This document shows positions 3 through 53,732 of a stretch of DNA of 64,000 nucleotides, one piece after another; position 1 is the first letter of the stretch, and each line of letters starts with the position of its first letter. The notes under the pieces were generated by a model, which saw only the letters and a program-made list of their open reading frames with translations, had not been told where the DNA came from and ran no database searches. The position numbers and the translations under genes are program-made. The stretch is from Candidatus Magnetomicrobium cryptolimnococcus (lineage in GTDB: Bacteria; Nitrospirota; Thermodesulfovibrionia; Thermodesulfovibrionales; Magnetobacteriaceae). The stretch covers positions 124,001 through 188,000 of the forward strand of contig JAGYWI010000003.1 in the NCBI GenBank assembly GCA_018606805.1, given 5' to 3'.

Positions 3-1640
3 AAAATAGCTGATATGAAAGGTAAAAATTTCTTTAAACATTTTCTACCATCAAATATTATAGAACAATACAAAGACAAATTTTTTGCCCCAGACACTAT
101 AAATCAAAGTATAATTATACCGATATTAACCCATAATAATGAAAGACGATACATTGAATGGTTCAATCGGCCACTAAAAAACGCTGAAATCAAAAGTATG
201 AAAGAGGGCTTCCTTGCCGTAGGCCACGATATTACTGAACGCAGAAATGCCGAGGCATTTTTGCGCGAAAGTGAACAAAAATATAGAACAATAATAAATA
301 CCACATCTGAAGGTTTTTGGCTTCTAACGCCGGAACTGGTTACCATAGACGTAAATGACTCATTGTGTAAAATGCTCGGCTATGGACGCCATGAGTTTAT
401 CAATAGAAAACCATTTGACTTTATAGCAAAAGAAAGCCTTATTAAATATTATGATAAAGTAAAACAAATTCCAACAACAACACAACGTGTGTACGAACTC
501 ATTTTTAATAAAAAAGATGGTAAACCGCTCTATGCCATAATAAACGCTACCACAATCATAGATAACACCGGTCAACCCAGTACAGTATTTACCTTTATTA
601 CAGATATAACAAGACATAAACAACTTGAAAAAAACTTACGGGAAAGCGAGGAGCGTTTCCGTGCACTTAGTGAAGCAACTTTTGAAGGTATTGCTATAGT
701 TAAAGGGAAAAAGATTGTTGAAACAAATAGTATGTTTTCCAATATGTTTGGATACGAACAACGAGAAATTATTGGTATGAAACTATCGGACTTCATATAT
801 GCAGACTATCATAATAATATAATCGGTGAGTGCGACTGCAATAACCATATCCATTGTGAATCAATAGGACTCAAAAAAGATAATACTAAATTTAATATAG
901 AAATATGCGGTAAAAATATGTACTACATGGGAGTAGCTGCAAGGGTATACGCTATACGTAATATCTCAAGATTCAAGGACGCTGAAGAACAAATCAAAAA
1001 ATCGCTCAAAGAAAAAGAAATGTTTTTAAGAGAAATACACCACAGAATTAAAAATAACCTTCAGATAATTATCAGTCTATTAAACTTACAATCATTATAT
1101 ATATCTGATACCAAAACACTTGAGGTATTTCAGGAAAGTAAAAACCGTATCAAGGCTATCTCCCTTATTCATGAGCGCCTGTATCAATCACAAGATGTAA
1201 GCAAAATTAGCACAAAAGACTATGTGATAAAACTGGTTAGTTCAATAACCCGCTCATACGGTTTGGATAATAGAAAAATCAAACTTACCTTCAACGTAGA
1301 AGATTTCCTACTGGGCATTGACACGGCCATACCGTGCGGTCTAATAATAAATGAGCTAATATCAAACGCCATGAAATATGCCTTCTCTAAAGATATGGAA
1401 GGCGAAATAATAATTTCATTTAAAGAAAAAGAGTCTGAAAGCTATGAATTAATAGTGGAAGATAACGGCATTGGCCTCCCACCGGGATTTAACTTTAAAA
1501 CAACCAAAAACGCCCTAGGCCTCCAACTTGTAAACGACCTAGTTGAAAGCCAGCTAGAAGGCGACATAAAGCTTGAAAGCACAGCAGGCACATGTTTTAT
1601 TATTAATTTTAAAGAGGTAAAGTATCAAGACAGAATTTAA
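3..1640 (+). CDS. PAS-domain sensor histidine kinase (HisKA_2 type), 5' end outside window
   Basis: Sensor kinase expected to autophosphorylate on histidine and pass the phosphate to a response regulator that is not in this window. The frame is open to the left edge and the first ~75 residues are the end of a PAS domain finishing in VGHDITERR, so the gene starts upstream; the ATG at 15 is internal. Two more PAS domains follow (about 85-205 and 210-325). The H-box REIHHRIKNNLQ lies near residue 340. An HATPase domain has an N-box (INELISNAMKY), a G1 box (VEDNGIGLP) and a G2-like ALGLQLV. The REIHHRIKNN form is typical of the HisKA_2 family. There are no membrane segments in the visible part, so it is probably soluble. 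Family call sure; ligand unknown. Confidence 0.9.
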   Translation, partial: KIADMKGKNFFKHFLPSNIIEQYKDKFFAPDTINQSIIIPILTHNNERRYIEWFNRPLKNAEIKSMKEGFLAVGHDITERRNAEAFLRESEQKYRTIINTTSEGFWLLTPELVTIDVNDSLCKMLGYGRHEFINRKPFDFIAKESLIKYYDKVKQIPTTTQRVYELIFNKKDGKPLYAIINATTIIDNTGQPSTVFTFITDITRHKQLEKNLRESEERFRALSEATFEGIAIVKGKKIVETNSMFSNMFGYEQREIIGMKLSDFIYADYHNNIIGECDCNNHIHCESIGLKKDNTKFNIEICGKNMYYMGVAARVYAIRNISRFKDAEEQIKKSLKEKEMFLREIHHRIKNNLQIIISLLNLQSLYISDTKTLEVFQESKNRIKAISLIHERLYQSQDVSKISTKDYVIKLVSSITRSYGLDNRKIKLTFNVEDFLLGIDTAIPCGLIINELISNAMKYAFSKDMEGEIIISFKEKESESYELIVEDNGIGLPPGFNFKTTKNALGLQLVNDLVESQLEGDIKLESTAGTCFIINFKEVKYQDRI

Positions 1641-1660
1641 TTTGTATTGAATTAAATACC

Positions 1661-1678
1661 AATACCGGCTGCGGTATT
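1661..1678. terminator. Short hairpin after the sensor kinase
   Basis: AATACCG-GCTG-CGGTATT forms a perfect 7-bp stem with a 4-nt loop, 20 nt after the kinase stop. There is no T-tract, so its role as a terminator is weakly supported. Confidence 0.3.
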
Positions 1679-1702
1679 AGTATAAGACATAAAAAAAATG
1701 GT

Positions 1703-1731
1703 TTGAAAAAATCATTAAAATTAGGTATAAT
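1703..1731 (+). promoter_or_regulatory. Sigma-70-type promoter for the first NACHT gene
   Basis: TTGAAA at 1703-1708, a 17-nt spacer, then TATAAT at 1726-1731. Transcription should start near 1738. The leader contains ATG GGG GAA... at 1749, a 9-codon frame whose TGA overlaps the ATG of the NACHT gene, which would allow translational coupling. Confidence 0.6.
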
Positions 1732-1774
1732 TAAAATACAGTTAAAAGATGGGGGAAATAATCACTAATAAATT

Positions 1775-4660
<2,886 letters not shown>

Positions 4661-4699
4661 ACCATTCCCTTAATAAAACAAAATAGAGTAAAATAAATA

Positions 4700-4777
4700 G
4701 GGAGGTGCGCCTACGCACCTTTTTGCCAAAAAAGGTTTTCCCCCACGCATCTTTTTCCTTAACTTATTTAGAAAAAG
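4700..4777. repeat. Modular intergenic hairpin element (copy 1)
   Basis: Contains the hairpin AGGTGCG-CCTA-CGCACCT (4703-4720), then the AAAAGGTTTTCCCCCACGC module and a pyrimidine-rich tail. A degraded second copy of the tail module (gtttccccctcaaatc) follows. The same modules recur between operons throughout the window. Confidence 0.75.
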
Positions 4778-4864
4778 TTTCCCCCTCAAATCTTTTTATC
4801 TTTATCCCTTTAATTTTGTTATAATGTCTGATATATTTCTTTAAAACAAATTATGGGGGTGCTA

Positions 4865-6127
4865 TTGCATTTTTTTACTTATAAGAAGAATATACTCCAC
4901 GTCGAGGATGTTCCTATCAGTGAATTGGCTGAGATATATGGAACTCCTATTTATATTTACAGCTATAAAACGCTTATAAGGCATTATAAGGCCTACGATG
5001 ATTCTTTTAAATATCATCCCCATCTAATATGCTTTGCTTTAAAGGCAAACACTAACAGGGCTCTCTTAACAGTGTTTGCTAAGGAGGGGGCTGGGGCTGA
5101 TGTAGTGTCGGGCGGGGAGCTTTATCGGGCGCTTATGGCTGGTATTTCCCCTAAAAAAATAGTGTATGCGGGCGTTGGTAAGACAGCGGTTGAGATTGAG
5201 TATGCCATAAGGCAGGGGATTTTAATGTTCAATGTTGAATCAGAGCAGGAGCTTGCTGAAATTGATAGGATTGCTGGCATTTGTAACATGAAAGCGCCCA
5301 TTGCTTTACGTGTCAATCCGGACATAGACCCTATGACGCATCCATATATCTCGACTGGTCTTAAGAAGAACAAGTTTGGCATTCCTTATGAGACAGCCAT
5401 TGAGTCTTACAAGTTTGCAGCTAGCTTAAAAAATATTGAAATCATAGGCATTCACAAACATATAGGCTCGCAGATTGTTAATTTAGCGCCATTTATGGAT
5501 GCCTTCAATCGGCTTTTGCACCTAGTTGATATGCTAAAAGAAGATGGCATATCCATAAAATATTTAGATATAGGTGGTGGGCTTGGCATACAGTACTTAG
5601 ATGAAATCCCGCCTCATCCAACAGAGCTTGCTAAGGAGTTTAAACCACTGTTGCAGGATAGGGATTTAATTATTATATTAGAACCGGGACGCACGATGGT
5701 TGGCAATGCCGGGGTCCTTATAACGAAGGTCTTGTATATAAAAAACGGTTACGACCGAGACTTTATCATAGTGGATGCGGGCATGAATGATCTGGCGCGG
5801 CCTGCCATGTATGGGGCGTATCATCATATAATGCCGGTGGCTAAGAAAAAGAACAGGCAGGAGGTTTTTGCTGATATAGTTGGGCCTATTTGCGAATCCG
5901 GGGATTTTCTTGGCAAGGAGCGACAGATACCGGAGGTTAAGCAGGGGGAGTTCGTAGCTGTTATGAGTGCTGGGGCTTATGGATACACGATGAGCTCTAA
6001 CTATAATAGTAGACCAAGACCTGCTGAGGTGCTTGTTAATGGTAGTGAACATTTTCTTATTAGGCAGCGCGAAACCTACGAAGACCTTGTGAAAGGGGAA
6101 ATGGTGCCTGAGTTTTTAAAAGGCTAA
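4865..6127 (+). CDS. lysA: Diaminopimelate decarboxylase
   Basis: PLP enzyme converting meso-diaminopimelate to lysine and CO2, the last step of lysine synthesis. Visible motifs are FALKANTN with the Schiff-base lysine, HKHIGSQI, DIGGGLGI, EPGRTMVGNAG, CESGDFLGK with the active-site cysteine, and GAYGYTMSSNYNSRPR. About 420 aa, normal for the family. I prefer the TTG at 4865 because GGGGG lies 5 nt upstream and the product then begins MHFFTYK, like other LysA proteins. An ATG at 4853 in the same frame adds four residues but has no Shine-Dalgarno. A TATAAT box lies at 4820-4825. dapF begins 13 nt after the stop, so the genes are probably co-transcribed. Confidence 0.97.
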   Translation: MHFFTYKKNILHVEDVPISELAEIYGTPIYIYSYKTLIRHYKAYDDSFKYHPHLICFALKANTNRALLTVFAKEGAGADVVSGGELYRALMAGISPKKIVYAGVGKTAVEIEYAIRQGILMFNVESEQELAEIDRIAGICNMKAPIALRVNPDIDPMTHPYISTGLKKNKFGIPYETAIESYKFAASLKNIEIIGIHKHIGSQIVNLAPFMDAFNRLLHLVDMLKEDGISIKYLDIGGGLGIQYLDEIPPHPTELAKEFKPLLQDRDLIIILEPGRTMVGNAGVLITKVLYIKNGYDRDFIIVDAGMNDLARPAMYGAYHHIMPVAKKKNRQEVFADIVGPICESGDFLGKERQIPEVKQGEFVAVMSAGAYGYTMSSNYNSRPRPAEVLVNGSEHFLIRQRETYEDLVKGEMVPEFLKG

Positions 6128-6140
6128 TTGGTGGAATCGT

Positions 6141-7055
6141 ATGATAGTTGATTTTATAAAAATGCAGGGGCTTGGTAACGATTTTTTAGTGTTTAATTGT
6201 CTTAGTTCGGAGCTACTTGCAGATACTATAGTATCTGTTGCCACAAGCCTATGTGATAGGCGCTTTGGTATTGGCGCTGACCAGATACTTTTGCTTCTGG
6301 ACCCTAAGGTGCGTAGGCGCACTCCCGTAAATGTGCGTAGGCGCACTCCCGTAAATGTGCGTAGGCGCACTCCCGAAGACAGCGATTTTCAAATGCGTAT
6401 AATCAACGCTGATGGCTCAGAGGTTGAAATGTGTGGTAACGGCATACGGTGTTTGGCTAAATATATTTGGGAGGCTGGGCTTTCTCAGAAAGACACGCTT
6501 GATATTGAAACTCTGGCCGGTACAATAAGACCTCAAAGGGTAGGCAAATTGGTTAAGGTAGATATGGGGCAACCTGTGCTTGAAGGAAGCCTAATTCCTA
6601 CTATGCTTACAGGCAAGGTCGTAGACCATCCGCTGAAAATTAACGGAAAAACCTTTAATATAACATGCGTATCTATGGGTAATCCACATACGGTTATCTT
6701 TGTAGATGATGTGGAGGGGTTTCCCGTACACGAGTATGGATCTATTATAGAAAAACATCCGTTTTTTCCAAAACGTACGAATGTGGAGTTTGTAGAAATA
6801 ATAGATAGCACTCACATAAAGATGCGGGTGTGGGAGAGGGGGGCTAATGAAACGCTTGCCTGTGGGACTGGCGCTTGTGCTGCCTCAGTAGCATCTACGA
6901 TAAAGGGATTTACTACTGGCGATACTAATGTGCTACTTCGAGGAGGTGAGCTGCTTATACAATGGCAAAATGGTAGTAGTGTGTATATGACAGGTCCGTC
7001 GGTTTCGGTTTTTAATGGTAGTATAGATTTGGATAGGTTTTTAGGGCAGGAGTGA
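6141..7055 (+). CDS. dapF: Diaminopimelate epimerase with palindromic-repeat insertion
   Basis: Interconverts LL- and meso-diaminopimelate, feeding both peptidoglycan and the neighbouring lysA. Both catalytic cysteines are present: EMCGNGIRC (Cys98) and LACGTGACA (Cys241). GLGNDFLVF at the N-terminus and NPHTVIFVDD also fit. The protein is 304 aa against roughly 275 for the family. The excess is at residues 57-79, where three copies of the genome's GTGCGTAGGCGCAC palindrome encode VRRRTPVN-VRRRTPVN-VRRRTP. The site lies between GIGADQILLLDPK and DFQMRIINADGS, a loop position in the family, and the frame is kept. The enzyme may therefore remain active. dapA follows after 36 nt. Confidence 0.95.
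   Translation: MIVDFIKMQGLGNDFLVFNCLSSELLADTIVSVATSLCDRRFGIGADQILLLLDPKVRRRTPVNVRRRTPVNVRRRTPEDSDFQMRIINADGSEVEMCGNGIRCLAKYIWEAGLSQKDTLDIETLAGTIRPQRVGKLVKVDMGQPVLEGSLIPTMLTGKVVDHPLKINGKTFNITCVSMGNPHTVIFVDDVEGFPVHEYGSIIEKHPFFPKRTNVEFVEIIDSTHIKMRVWERGANETLACGTGACAASVASTIKGFTTGDTNVLLRGGELLIQWQNGSSVYMTGPSVSVFNGSIDLDRFLGQE
6309..6375 (+). repeat. In-gene tandem palindromic repeat inside dapF
   Basis: Two identical 24-nt units (6309-6332, 6333-6356) and a third partial copy (6357-6375). Each has the stem GTGCG-TAGG-CGCAC followed by TCCCG. The unit length is a multiple of three, and the same hairpin occurs in the intergenic elements near 4.7, 14.9, 19.5 and 42.4 kb. Confidence 0.95.
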
Positions 7056-7091
7056 GTTAACTATTTTTTATGGATTACAGGAGGATTCTTT

Positions 7092-7964
7092 ATGTTTAGC
7101 GGTTCTTATGTTGCTATAGTTACACCATTTAAAAATGGCAAATTTGATGAAAGTGCTTATAGGGCTCTTATTGAGTGGCATATCGTAGAGGGCACTAACG
7201 GGATAGTGCCAGTAGGCACAACCGGTGAGTCGGCTACCTTGGAATACGAAGAGCACTATAGGGTTATACAGGTTGCTGTAGAGACAGCAGCAAAAAGGGT
7301 GCCTGTAATTGCTGGCACAGGGGCTAATTCTACAAGTGAAACCATAATGATGACGAAGGTTGCTAAAGAACTTGGTGCAGATGGGGCTTTGCTTGTTTGC
7401 CCATACTATAATAAGCCGACACAAGAGGGGTTATATCAGCATTTTAAAGCTGTTGCCGAGTCAGTAGATTTACCATTGGTTTTATACAATGTACCCGGAA
7501 GAACAGCCATTAATATAGAACCACAGACGGTCTTGAGGCTTTCGGAGGTACCAAACATTGTTGCTATTAAGGAGGCCTCCGGTGATATGAAACAAGCTAG
7601 TGAGCTCATAAGGCTTTGCGGTGATAAGATGGATGTTTTGTCCGGTGATGATTTTACAACCTTTTCATTAATGGCAATGGGTGGTAAAGGGGTTATTTCA
7701 GTTTGCGCTAATATATTACCTAGACTTACTTCTCTTTTGTGTAAGTATATGCTTGCCAATCAGGTGTTGCAGGCAAGAGAGGTACATTTTAAATTAGAGC
7801 CATTAAATAAGGTGCTTTTCATTGAAACAAACCCTATACCTGTTAAGACAGCCTTAAGTCTTATGGGCAAGATTGATGAGGAGTTTCGCCTACCACTTTG
7901 CATGATGTCAAAAAACAATAAAGACACTCTGAGGTCTGTCCTTGCTTCATATGGGATTGTTTAA
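7092..7964 (+). CDS. dapA: 4-hydroxy-tetrahydrodipicolinate synthase
   Basis: Class I aldolase-fold enzyme condensing pyruvate with aspartate semialdehyde, the first committed step towards diaminopimelate. PVGTTGESATL (pyruvate-binding T-T), YNVPGRT with the catalytic tyrosine, and AIKEASGD with the Schiff-base lysine (about Lys160) are present. 290 aa, the normal length. A strong AGGAGG lies 7 nt before the ATG. It is the third gene of a lysA-dapF-dapA run; no dapB follows, and the next 600 nt are non-coding. Confidence 0.97.
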   Translation: MFSGSYVAIVTPFKNGKFDESAYRALIEWHIVEGTNGIVPVGTTGESATLEYEEHYRVIQVAVETAAKRVPVIAGTGANSTSETIMMTKVAKELGADGALLVCPYYNKPTQEGLYQHFKAVAESVDLPLVLYNVPGRTAINIEPQTVLRLSEVPNIVAIKEASGDMKQASELIRLCGDKMDVLSGDDFTTFSLMAMGGKGVISVCANILPRLTSLLCKYMLANQVLQAREVHFKLEPLNKVLFIETNPIPVKTALSLMGKIDEEFRLPLCMMSKNNKDTLRSVLASYGIV

Positions 7965-8591
7965 CGGTAACACTAACTATGTATTAGGAAAATTTCTCAA
8001 TGTTAAGTGAAAACACGAGATATTCTCACAACTATATCTTTAGATTATCACAGTCTTACACACATTTAGGTACAATAAAACATTTTAATTGCGTTTGGAA
8101 TGATAAAACTTCTATTTATTAAAGGTTTGATGTCATTCTAAGCACAACAACGAATTAAGTAATAGTTCAGCCCCATGCCTCGTCATTGCGAGGAGCTTAA
8201 GCGACAAAGCAATCCCGTTTTTTACTAAAGAGAGATTGCAGGGAGGTGCGCCTCCGCACCTTCGCTACGCTTGCAATGACAAAAGAGGGTGAACTATTAC
8301 TGACTTAACACTTGCTAACCAAAATAACTGAGCTAAAGGGGTGATGCACGTTCATTATAAAATAACAAAAAACCAGGCACTACCCCTTAAACTCAGTATC
8401 TTGTATCTATCGCTCCTATACTAAGAACAAAAAAAACAATAATTCTCGTCAGCAACTTAACATCAACCGCTCATCCGCCGTGCCTACTGTAAGCAATAGT
8501 GTCATGCCGCCTCTTAAAAATCTGCCGCAATCCTACAAGAAAAACCTAAAGCCAGATAATTCTACCCTTTAGTATCAATAGGTACTATCAT
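7965..8591. other. Intergenic region between dapA and the flaG-like gene
   Basis: Holds the palindromic element at 8158-8301 described separately. The rest is AT-rich, with no convincing gene or RNA. It lies between two convergent transcription units. Confidence 0.6.
8158..8301. repeat. MITE-like palindromic element with nested hairpins
   Basis: The outer arms AGTAATAGTTCA (8158-8169) and TGAACTATTACT (8290-8301) are exact inverted repeats. Inside are GTCATTGCGA / TTGCAATGAC arms (8182-8191, 8271-8280) and a GCAATC/GATTGC pair. The hairpin AGGTGCG-CCTC-CGCACCT (8244-8261), a copy of the local palindrome family, is nested within. The GTCATTGCGAGG...GCAATC type is, from memory, a widespread intergenic palindrome in bacteria. 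There is no transposase. Confidence 0.75.
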
Positions 8592-8990
8592 TCAGACTTC
8601 TGCATGAAAAAGATTTTGATAACTAACCTTCATTCGTTCAACGAGTTTCAAATACTCTTCCGGTGGTATCTGTTTAAGCAATTCACCGTCAGGGTTTACT
8701 ATTCTTATTACAACCTGCTGAGCCTTTTCATCAACGGCAAAATATGCCTTATTGACAATCATATCTATTTCCGGTAATTCGATTGGTTTTAATTCCTCTA
8801 TTCCTAGCTCATCTTTTTCTTCTTCACCACTTTTGTCCTTGTTTATTGCCACAATGTCTTTAATAATTAAAGGCTTTTTGTTTTCCTTATCAGGCGTTAC
8901 TATGGATTCGACAGCGCCAGCCCTTTGCTCTTCCGCTGCGGAAGCTCCTGTTAGGGCTGATATATCTATACCTATTTTGTTTATTTCCAT
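8592..8990 (-). CDS. flaG: FlaG-family flagellar protein
   Basis: 132 aa. The C-terminal ~55 residues (AYFAVDEKAQQVVIRIVNPD, then LLKQIPPEEYLKLVERM) match the FlaG family pattern of a short beta-rich segment followed by QIPPEE and a helix. The N-terminal half is acidic, Lys/Glu-rich and probably disordered. FlaG proteins influence flagellar filament length or assembly in several bacteria; the precise role here is inference. No flagellin, fliD or fliS neighbour is visible, so the flagellar context is thin. Confidence 0.75.
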   Translation of the reverse strand: MEINKIGIDISALTGASAAEEQRAGAVESIVTPDKENKKPLIIKDIVAINKDKSGEEEKDELGIEELKPIELPEIDMIVNKAYFAVDEKAQQVVIRIVNPDGELLKQIPPEEYLKLVERMKVSYQNLFHAEV

Positions 8991-9256
8991 GTCGTCTTCT
9001 CTTATATATAATTTAGTTTATCTACATTCTTAATTACAAGACTCTAACAGATGCTGTCATATTTTATACATCCTCAAAGCCTTTGTAAATACAAATTCTA
9101 CCTCCACACTATTTTTTCCGCTTATCCAAACATTTACCCACAATTTATAAACAAAACAGTCCCCGAAAGCCTGATCTAAATACCTCTACTCTAATCCATC
9201 TCTTTCAAATCTTACAACCTGTAAGTGGAACTTCCAATTACCACCCCAACTATTGT

Positions 9257-9640
9257 TTATGCCTTTACGATACTTTCCTCCAAATCTTTGTTCGGTTCCG
9301 ATTTCTCCTCTTTTGGTTTATCTTCTTTTGGTTCATCAGCCGCTGCTGTCTTATTAGTATCCTGTGCCTCTCCCGGTGTGCTCACTTGAGAAGCCTCTTG
9401 TGTATATTCCCCGCCAGTAACATTTTCAACAGCCCTCGAAGTTATAGTCTTTGAAGTCTCAGCCGCAGACTGTGCTTCTTTAGCTGAATCCGAAATATCT
9501 ACAACCACATCCGGTCCATACTTAGTTTCTGTTTCCTTACGTGCCTCTGCCCCCGACGTATCAGTTGCCTGTGCCTTTTCGTTTGGCCTTATTATTTCTA
9601 TTTTTACGGCATCCTGTAATGATGTTGTGATTTCTTGCAT
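9257..9640 (-). CDS. Small acidic disordered protein, unknown
   Basis: 127 aa, rich in Glu, Lys, Ala and Thr with no cysteine, no hydrophobic segment and a low-complexity C-terminus (DEPKEDKPKEEKSEP). One short hydrophobic stretch, DVVVDISDSAKEAQS, recalls the amphipathic motif of proteins encoded next to flagellar genes, but I do not recognise a family. A good GGGGGTGG ribosome site precedes the ATG by 4 nt, and a TATAAT box (complement of 9660-9665) lies just upstream, so it is probably a real gene with its own promoter. flaG lies 266 nt downstream on the same strand. Confidence 0.6.
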   Translation of the reverse strand: MQEITTSLQDAVKIEIIRPNEKAQATDTSGAEARKETETKYGPDVVVDISDSAKEAQSAAETSKTITSRAVENVTGGEYTQEASQVSTPGEAQDTNKTAAADEPKEDKPKEEKSEPNKDLEESIVKA

Positions 9641-48246: not shown

Positions 48247-48830
48247 TTAAAAAAAGAAAAAAAAAGAAGAAAAAAAAGAAAAGAGAAAGATAGAAGAAAA
48301 GGGGGCAGGACGCTGTCCTTCCCCCTTCGACCCCCTACCTGCAATGGGTCGAATGACCCCTTGACCCCTTATGTGCTCATCTGGTGGTTAAATTTATACC
48401 TGTGCTAGCATAACAACTAAAGCGTCTATTGGGGAAATGGCACGGCCTTAAGAAAGCCAAAAAGACGGCTTTCTTAAGGCCGTGCCATTTCCCCATAGAC
48501 GCTTTGGTGTAATCAGGGGGAGAAAGAAGCTCTCCCCCTGAGAGAAGACCCCCTCTGGACTCTTTTATCTACTGGTGCGCAAGCGCACCAGATGTGTTAC
48601 CACTGTAGAGTCTCTGCGCAAGCTCCAAAAGAGTTTAGAGAGGGGGATTTAAAGGGGGAGATATGTTTCCTCCCCCTTTTTGCGCCAAATCGCCGACGGG
48701 AAAGAGTACCACCCATTTTTTTTATGGGTGGTACTCTTTCCCGTCGGCGATTTACTCGTTATGCCTGCACAAGTTTTGGGAAAGAAAATGTCATTTTGCC
48801 ACAGTGTACAACATTTAGCACTTATTGTCA
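48247..48830. repeat. Hairpin-dense intergenic region
   Basis: After a polypurine tract (48247-48300) the region contains AGGAC-GCT-GTCCT (about 48307-48319). A 39-bp stem with one bulged T lies at 48419-48505 (loop 48459-48466). TCAGGGGGAGA / TCTCCCCCTGA are at 48513-48541. CTGGTGCGC-AA-GCGCACCAG (48572-48591) sits within imperfect CCCCCTCT...AGAGGGGG arms. A perfect 30-bp stem with a 7-T loop lies at 48687-48753. No gene seen; the apparent frames across it are by-products of the palindromes. Confidence 0.9.
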
Positions 48831-52479: not shown

Positions 52480-52933
52480 ATTTGTTAAACATAGAGCCGA
52501 CATTCCGCACCCCCTTCTTATAAGTCATGAATAAAATACTTTATAATTTTCACCTAGTATATCTAATATTAGAAGATGATATTCATTGATATTAATGACG
52601 AGTTCCTGTACACCCCTTACAATTAATCAATGAATTCCAAAAAAAATGTGGAATATCCATCTGGCTGTTGGATTATCAATAGATTTTCCTTTTTGATTAG
52701 GGAAAGTTGCCTTTCGTAAGTGTATCATCATTTAAGTGTTGATATTCAACATTTTTGCCTATTAATCTTTCAACTGGTTTATCCTTAAAAAAAGATGGTA
52801 TTAGATATAGTTGTTTGTTCACAAATCCTAAACCGTTTAATACCATACTTTTCACTCACTAAACAATGCAGTGCAGATAACATATATGGTCTTTTATGCT
52901 TATATAATATTAAAAACAACATAAAAGACAATT
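52480..52933. other. Intergenic region after the GspE-like gene
   Basis: AT-rich, with no ribosome sites or codon pattern that convinces me of a gene. A frame at 52795-53079 exists but runs into the MITE and has no family resemblance. Confidence 0.5.
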
Positions 52934-53732
52934 ATGTTAACAAAATACATTTTATATATGCAAAAAAAGACTGGTATTTATTCCACAGATATTATTTAGT
53001 GTCTGAACGGAAACTCATATTGTCTTTATATATCAGTAAGTTAGAGACAATTTGCTATAATGAAGATTTTTTCTATTAATAGAATTATATATGTAATATA
53101 TTCCAGTATATGTTCTAAATATGGTTTTTGCCTAACAAATGCTGAGCTTTTATAAGGATTAAAAACACAAATTATTATGACAAAAATTATAGTATGGAAG
53201 TATATACATACTTTATACTCATTCAATAAAAAATCTTCGTTTTGTAAAACTATTATAAGTATTTGTTTTATAGGCTTCTTTTGACTTTTCGTTCAGACAC
53301 TATTTATCCACTTATCCTATATCAGAGGAACACTTTTGTGATGAGTGTAAAAAATATTTTCCAAATCTTTTTATCCACGAAAGAAATAAAAAAACAATAA
53401 GAAAAATGGACGGTGGGCTCGCTCTTTTTGCAAAAGAGATTATAAGACACTTAGGGATATTAAACGATAATGCTACAGATTATGAATTAAGAACAAGATT
53501 AGATTCATTTTGCAAAAAACATAAAATAGAAGGTTCACTAGAGGGAAATATAGATAAGAAAAAGGATTTTACTTTCGAATTTTCTAATCAACGAGTATGT
53601 TGTGAACCACATTTAAAGCTAAAAACTGCCAATACTGCTGGCAACACACACCGTTATGAACATAGAATATATTTTTACCAGGATATTGAGGGAGGAAAAA
53701 TATTGATAGGACATATTGGTGTACACTTATAA
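52934..53732 (+). pseudogene. Hypothetical gene interrupted by a MITE (two parts)
   Basis: The frame from ATG 52934 runs to codon ATT at 52994-52996 and then hits TAG, whose TA is the element's target dinucleotide. Removing 52999-53300 and one TA rejoins the frame exactly (TAT TTA TCC ACT...), giving about 165 aa. The downstream part includes EEHFCDECKKYFPNLF and the C-terminus QRVCCEPHLKLKTAN...YEHRIYFYQDIEGGKIL...IGHIGVHL. That C-terminus looks like the end of a larger, probably nucleic-acid-related protein, though I cannot name the family. From ATG 53406 a 108-aa fragment could still be translated. Confidence 0.6.
52999..53300. mobile_element. MITE with IS630/Tc1-type features (302 bp)
   Basis: Terminal inverted repeats GTGTCTGAACGGAAACTCA and GTGTCTGAACGAAAAGTCA (17 of 19 match) lie at both ends, each flanked by TA, as expected for TA target duplication in the IS630/Tc1-mariner group. 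A further internal inverted pair around AGATTTTTT...AAAAAATCT supports a palindromic AT-rich MITE. No transposase frame. Confidence 0.8.

What the first reader, a model, noticed from the sequence alone, without database searches (positions are those of the whole stretch)
52934..53732. MITE whose precise excision restores an open reading frame
The 302-bp element with 17/19 matching terminal repeats and flanking TA dinucleotides interrupts a frame. Removing it plus one TA joins codons exactly in phase and gives about 165 aa. This marks a recent insertion and gives the target-site rule (TA), pointing to an IS630/Tc1-type transposase elsewhere in the genome.
Basis: seen in the sequence. Interest (0 to 1): 0.6.

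Follow-up and report, generated by a model that had tools for sequence, protein, structure and literature searches.

The report
Miniature ISNCY transposon in defence-gene relic

Summary
The element is real: 302 bp (52999-53300), terminal repeats matching 17/19, A+T-rich, no transposase, with a second truncated copy (87% identical) and several solitary ends elsewhere in the genome. Two parts of the reading are wrong.

(1) Target rule and mobiliser. The flanks carry a 6-bp direct repeat, TATTTA, not just TA. The same ends (GTGnCTGAACGAAAA) bound ISNCY-family (NF033593) transposase genes in other bacteria, and one such end precedes a decayed ISNCY transposase in this genome. ISNCY elements examined here repeatedly duplicate TAn(2-3)TA. 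Nothing points to IS630/Tc1.

(2) Interrupted gene. The target is the 3' part of nsnC of the Menshen anti-phage system. Removing the element plus one TA puts the two homologous halves out of frame. Removing it plus one TATTTA joins NsnC profile positions 144 and 145 with no gap.

nsnC also lacks its first ~103 codons, and no nsnA or nsnB lies in the window. The locus is a decayed defence relic carrying a low-copy ISNCY-type MITE: a new member of a known kind.

The parts
52999..53300 (.). MITE, 302 bp, non-autonomous ISNCY-type element
   Evidence: no ORF over 61 aa; partial second copy at C8:97399-97638, 87% identity
52999..53017 (+). left terminal inverted repeat GTGTCTGAACGGAAACTCA
   Evidence: 17/19 identical to the right end; exact 18-nt match TAGTGTCTGAACGGAAAC at C9:12574(-)
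53282..53300 (-). right terminal inverted repeat GTGTCTGAACGAAAAGTCA
   Evidence: 31/35 identity with the outer end of the decayed ISNCY element on C54; 20/21 with the solitary end on C28
52993..52998 (.). target-site duplication TATTTA, left copy
   Evidence: Identical to 53301-53306; a 5-8 bp repeat arises in 0.46% of random TA-flanked pairs drawn from the surrounding sequence
53301..53306 (.). target-site duplication TATTTA, right copy
52864..52998 (+). nsnC fragment, upstream half (NsnC residues ~103-144); frame of ORF 52795-53079
   Evidence: tblastn with G002 NsnC 103-144, E 1.4e-5, and Bernardetia NsnC, E 3e-5; PADLOC PDLC03899 positions 104-144
53307..53732 (+). nsnC fragment, downstream half (NsnC residues ~145-300) with stop codon
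   Evidence: tblastn E 3e-39; PADLOC PDLC03899 positions 145-299, E 4e-43

Best explanation
A non-autonomous miniature element (MITE) of the ISNCY group (NCBIfam NF033593, DDE transposase) was moved in trans by an ISNCY transposase recognising GTGnCTGAACGAAAA ends. It inserted at TATTTA inside nsnC, a gene of the Menshen anti-phage system, and duplicated those 6 bp. Ends, 6-bp duplication and target gene are shown by sequence. The trans-mobilisation and cut-and-paste chemistry are inferred. Independently, before or after, nsnC lost its first ~103 codons and its partners nsnA and nsnB are absent from the window, so the locus is now a pseudogene. The likely mobiliser survives in this assembly only as a decayed fragment, so the MITE is probably immobile now.
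For: Ends: the MITE right end matches 31/35 with the outer end of a decayed element on contig C54. Downstream of that end lies a broken ISNCY_1 transposase (NF033593: E 9.9e-6; match at C54:12972-13088). Its relatives in a Desulfobacterales MAG (L090), NaphS2 (L094), Methylotuvimicrobium (L099) and others carry the same end GTGnCTGAACGAAAA, or a close variant, after TA. The L094 transposase scores 475 bits to NF033593 (cut-off 325). Duplication: exact TAn(2-3)TA repeats flank this MITE (TATTTA) and L104 (TAATTTA), L054 (TAACTA), L055 (TAGCTA), ISRtr6 (TAGCTA) and ISMlo5 (TAGTCTA). Target: NsnC of G002 aligns as residues 103-144 to 52864-52998 and 137-300 to the downstream frame. Removing 302+6 bp joins profile positions 144 and 145, raises PADLOC NsnC to 174.7 bits against 152.2 for the TA joint, and aligns gaplessly at the joint to four NsnC homologues. 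In full systems this gene follows nsnA and nsnB.
Against: L090, L099 and L105 show only TA as an exact repeat; L090 has TAATTA/TAAATA and L099 TATATA/TAAGTA, so the 6-bp rule is not universal among the elements checked. No intact ISNCY transposase was found in this genome, though it is a 91-contig draft. Apart from ~35 bp at the end, the MITE body does not match the C54 element, so it is not a simple deletion of it.
Confidence: 0.87

Rival explanations
1. One reading: an IS630/Tc1-type MITE that duplicates only TA; its excision with one TA restores a 165-aa gene.
For: Both flanks are TA, and a TA joint gives an open frame of 164 codons. IS630 transposase genes exist in the genome.
Against: The TA joint puts the two NsnC-homologous halves out of frame, with stop codons. 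The IS630 loci in this genome show no GTGTCTGAACG-like ends within 2 mismatches. ISNCY genes are bounded by this end sequence.
Confidence: 0.06
2. The element has a 2-bp TA duplication with a broader TAnnTAnnTA preference, is mobilised by ISNCY, and nsnC already carried a frameshift at the site.
For: L090 and L099 have TAnnTA on both sides with differing middle bases. nsnC is decayed anyway.
Against: Six of nine elements have exact 6-7 bp repeats, and the 6-bp joint is gapless against NsnC homologues, which a pre-existing indel would have to mimic by chance.
Confidence: 0.06
3. Not a mobile element: a chance inverted repeat in A+T-rich intergenic DNA.
For: The region is A+T-rich and contains many weak inverted repeats.
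Against: A dispersed second copy on another contig, end matches to ISNCY elements in other phyla, a 6-bp duplication, and a split homologous gene on either side.
Confidence: 0.01

Closest known systems
ISNCY-family insertion sequences of the NF033593 (transpos_ISNCY_1) type, e.g. those in L090, L094 and M. alcaliphilum plasmid MEALZ_p
   Same: Same end sequence GTGnCTGAACGAAAA next to TA; target motif TAnnTA; a decayed member occurs in the same genome.
   Different: The window element is 302 bp without a transposase; the autonomous elements are 1.65-2.0 kb. Its body is unrelated to theirs beyond ~35 bp.
ISfinder-named ISNCY elements ISRtr6 and ISMlo5 (rhizobial plasmids)
   Same: Duplicate TAGCTA and TAGTCTA, the same TAn(2-3)TA pattern as TATTTA here.
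   Different: End sequences GTTTCCGTCCAC and GTGCGCGTCCAT; transposases about 25% identical to the L094 one.
IS630/Tc1 MITEs
   Same: Small size, inverted ends, TA next to both ends.
   Different: End sequence not found on the genome's IS630 loci; duplication is 6 bp.
Menshen anti-phage system, gene nsnC
   Same: Both halves of the interrupted sequence match PADLOC NsnC (PDLC03899).
   Different: First ~103 residues missing; no nsnA or nsnB in the window; interrupted by the MITE.

Membership tests
ISNCY (NF033593)-type MITE | Terminal repeats shared with an autonomous ISNCY element | tested here: met
   31/35 with the C54 element end; GTGnCTGAACGAAAA ends on L090, L094, L099
ISNCY (NF033593)-type MITE | Target duplication of the ISNCY type, TAn(2-3)TA | tested here: met
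   TATTTA; the same pattern in 5 of 8 ISNCY elements with both ends found
ISNCY (NF033593)-type MITE | No transposase of its own | tested here: met
   Longest internal frame 61 aa
ISNCY (NF033593)-type MITE | Active mobilising transposase in the same genome | tested here: not met
   Only a decayed fragment, C54:12972-13088; draft of 91 contigs, so a copy may be missing. Not required for being a MITE relic.
ISNCY (NF033593)-type MITE | Transposition in trans demonstrated | not testable with these tools
   Needs an experiment
IS630/Tc1 MITE | Exactly 2-bp TA duplication | tested here: not met
   6-bp direct repeat; the TA joint shifts the nsnC frame
IS630/Tc1 MITE | Ends shared with an IS630 element | tested here: not met
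   No match within 2 mismatches around three IS630 loci in this genome; the C1 locus starts 357 bp from a contig edge
Menshen NsnC | Sequence match to NsnC | tested here: met
   PDLC03899, E 6.8e-52 for the two halves together
Menshen NsnC | Complete gene next to nsnA and nsnB | tested here: not met
   Residues 1-102 and both partner genes not found in the window

The most novel reading that the evidence does not exclude
MITEs of the ISNCY (NF033593) group have, as far as the held literature shows, not been described, and the group shares a target rule (duplication of TAn(2-3)TA) that this MITE follows and that I found stated in no held paper.
Probability: 0.3. Interest if true: 0.3.

Novelty: new member of a known kind. 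Interest (0 to 1): 0.2.

Why it matters
It corrects the assignment of a miniature element. A TA beside each end is not enough to call IS630/Tc1; here the interrupted gene acts as a ruler and shows a 6-bp duplication of the ISNCY type. It also shows Menshen defence genes decaying in this lineage. The practical use is for annotation; there is no new mechanism.

Tried and rejected
IS630 as mobiliser: three loci in the genome examined, no matching ends. Copies of the MITE in 149 relatives: none beyond short chance matches. An uninterrupted orthologue at the same place in a relative: none; the only close homologue of this NsnC subfamily, in G002, is 50% identical and sits in a complete Menshen system between polyketide-synthase genes. 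An intact ISNCY transposase in this genome: none. Viral contigs for the transposase: none. Structured RNA: no Rfam match; the strand folds better than shuffles (z -3.1), which I attribute to the terminal repeats and an internal inverted repeat, not pursued. Published description of an ISNCY MITE: none found in the held library; the Microcystis MITE there is ascribed to ISL3 (PMC11448079).

Full report
Observation. The segment 52999-53300 is 302 bp, 24.5% G+C in a 38.5% window, with ends identical at 17 of 19 positions. It holds no frame longer than 61 aa. The 11-mer GTGTCTGAACG occurs exactly only at the two ends in the 64-kb window. In the rest of the 3.59-Mb draft genome there is one further partial copy (C8:97399-97638, 87% identity over 240 bp, 3' end lost), solitary ends at C9:12574 (18/18 to the left end) and C28:15240 (20/21 to the right end), and an end on C54. 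The pattern TAGTGTCTGAACG with up to one mismatch occurs 8 times against 2 for the reversed control. The element is not found in 149 related genomes.

Who moves it. The C54 end (31/35 to the MITE's right end) precedes a broken gene whose product matches ISNCY_1 transposase, NF033593. A search for that protein in named genomes and plasmids gave ISNCY elements in a Desulfobacterales MAG, NaphS2, a Verrucomicrobiae MAG, an Ectothiorhodospiraceae MAG and Desulfotignum, and on a Methylotuvimicrobium plasmid. All but two of these loci (L093 and L096) show GTGnCTGAACGAAAA or a close variant directly after a TA. The NaphS2 transposase scores 475 bits to NF033593 (cut-off 325) and weakly to IS5 and IS1182 models, with a DDE_Tnp_1 domain. 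The genome's IS630 loci show no such ends. The mobiliser is therefore most likely of the ISNCY group, not IS630/Tc1. Mobilisation in trans is inferred.

Target duplication. Both ends of nine elements were examined. Exact direct repeats of 6-7 bp of the form TAn(2-3)TA flank six: this MITE (TATTTA), L054 (TAACTA), L055 (TAGCTA), L104 (TAATTTA), ISRtr6 (TAGCTA) and ISMlo5 (TAGTCTA). Three (L090, L099, L105) share only TA exactly, although L090 and L099 still have TAnnTA on each side. Random TA-flanked pairs from the neighbourhood show a 5-8 bp repeat in 0.46% of draws.

The interrupted gene. In the two plasmids each follows a DUF262 gene and a DUF3696 gene; the phage record labels its trio Menshen NsnA/B/C. 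The best homologue, 50% identical, is in a related genome (G002), again behind nsnA and nsnB, and PADLOC names all three. Searching the window with full-length NsnC shows two matching stretches: residues 103-144 on 52864-52998 and residues 137-300 on 53286-53729, in different frames. With one TA kept, the homologous halves are out of frame and stops soon follow. With one TATTTA kept (302+6 bp absent) they run on as ...DWYLFHRYYL|STYPISEEHFCDECKKYF..., aligned without a gap at the joint to four NsnC proteins. The profile positions of the two pieces abut exactly (104-144 and 145-299), and the score rises from 152.2 bits (TA joint) to 174.7 (6-bp joint). The gene thus supports a 6-bp duplication independently of the flank repeat.

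State of the gene. Residues 1-102 of NsnC and the genes nsnA and nsnB are not detectable in the window. A further NsnB/NsnC pair (C5) and a NsnA/NsnB/NsnC set with shortened NsnA and NsnC (C91) occur elsewhere in the genome. The window locus is a pseudogene. Whether the MITE or the 5' loss came first is not known. The perfect 6-bp repeat argues against great age; the 13% divergence of the C8 copy argues against a recent burst.

Verdict. A real MITE, correctly spotted, but filed under the wrong transposon group and with the wrong duplication length and upstream frame. It is a new member of a known kind.

Noticed in passing
L126 (G000:C91:63500-70500) 2006-4359 and L125 (G000:C5:2500-10000) 2679-4904: Two further Menshen loci in the same genome: C91 has a shortened NsnA (151 aa), an NsnB and an NsnC cut at about two thirds; C5 has an NsnB (426 aa) and a full-length NsnC without a separate NsnA gene.
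   Followed up: partly
L045 (G000:C54:8000-13315) 1579-4619: A SIR2-domain protein (ThsA-like PADLOC match) followed by a 676-aa P-loop protein, probably a SIR2/NACHT-type defence pair, directly before the ISNCY remnant. A degenerate ISNCY-like end (TAGTGGCCGAACGAAAA) lies just upstream of the pair.
   Followed up: partly
window 48430-48753: Two perfect hairpins (29-bp and 30-bp arms, loops of 8 and 7 nt) close together; unrelated to the MITE.
   Followed up: no
L097 (G002:C2) 6052-9534: A complete Menshen nsnABC operon sits between two large polyketide-synthase genes in a related genome.
   Followed up: no
window 52789-52852: 15-bp inverted repeat (AAAAAGATGGTATTA / TAATACCATACTTTT) just upstream of the nsnC remnant, where the gene's 5' part is missing; could mark another lost or inserted element.
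   Followed up: no
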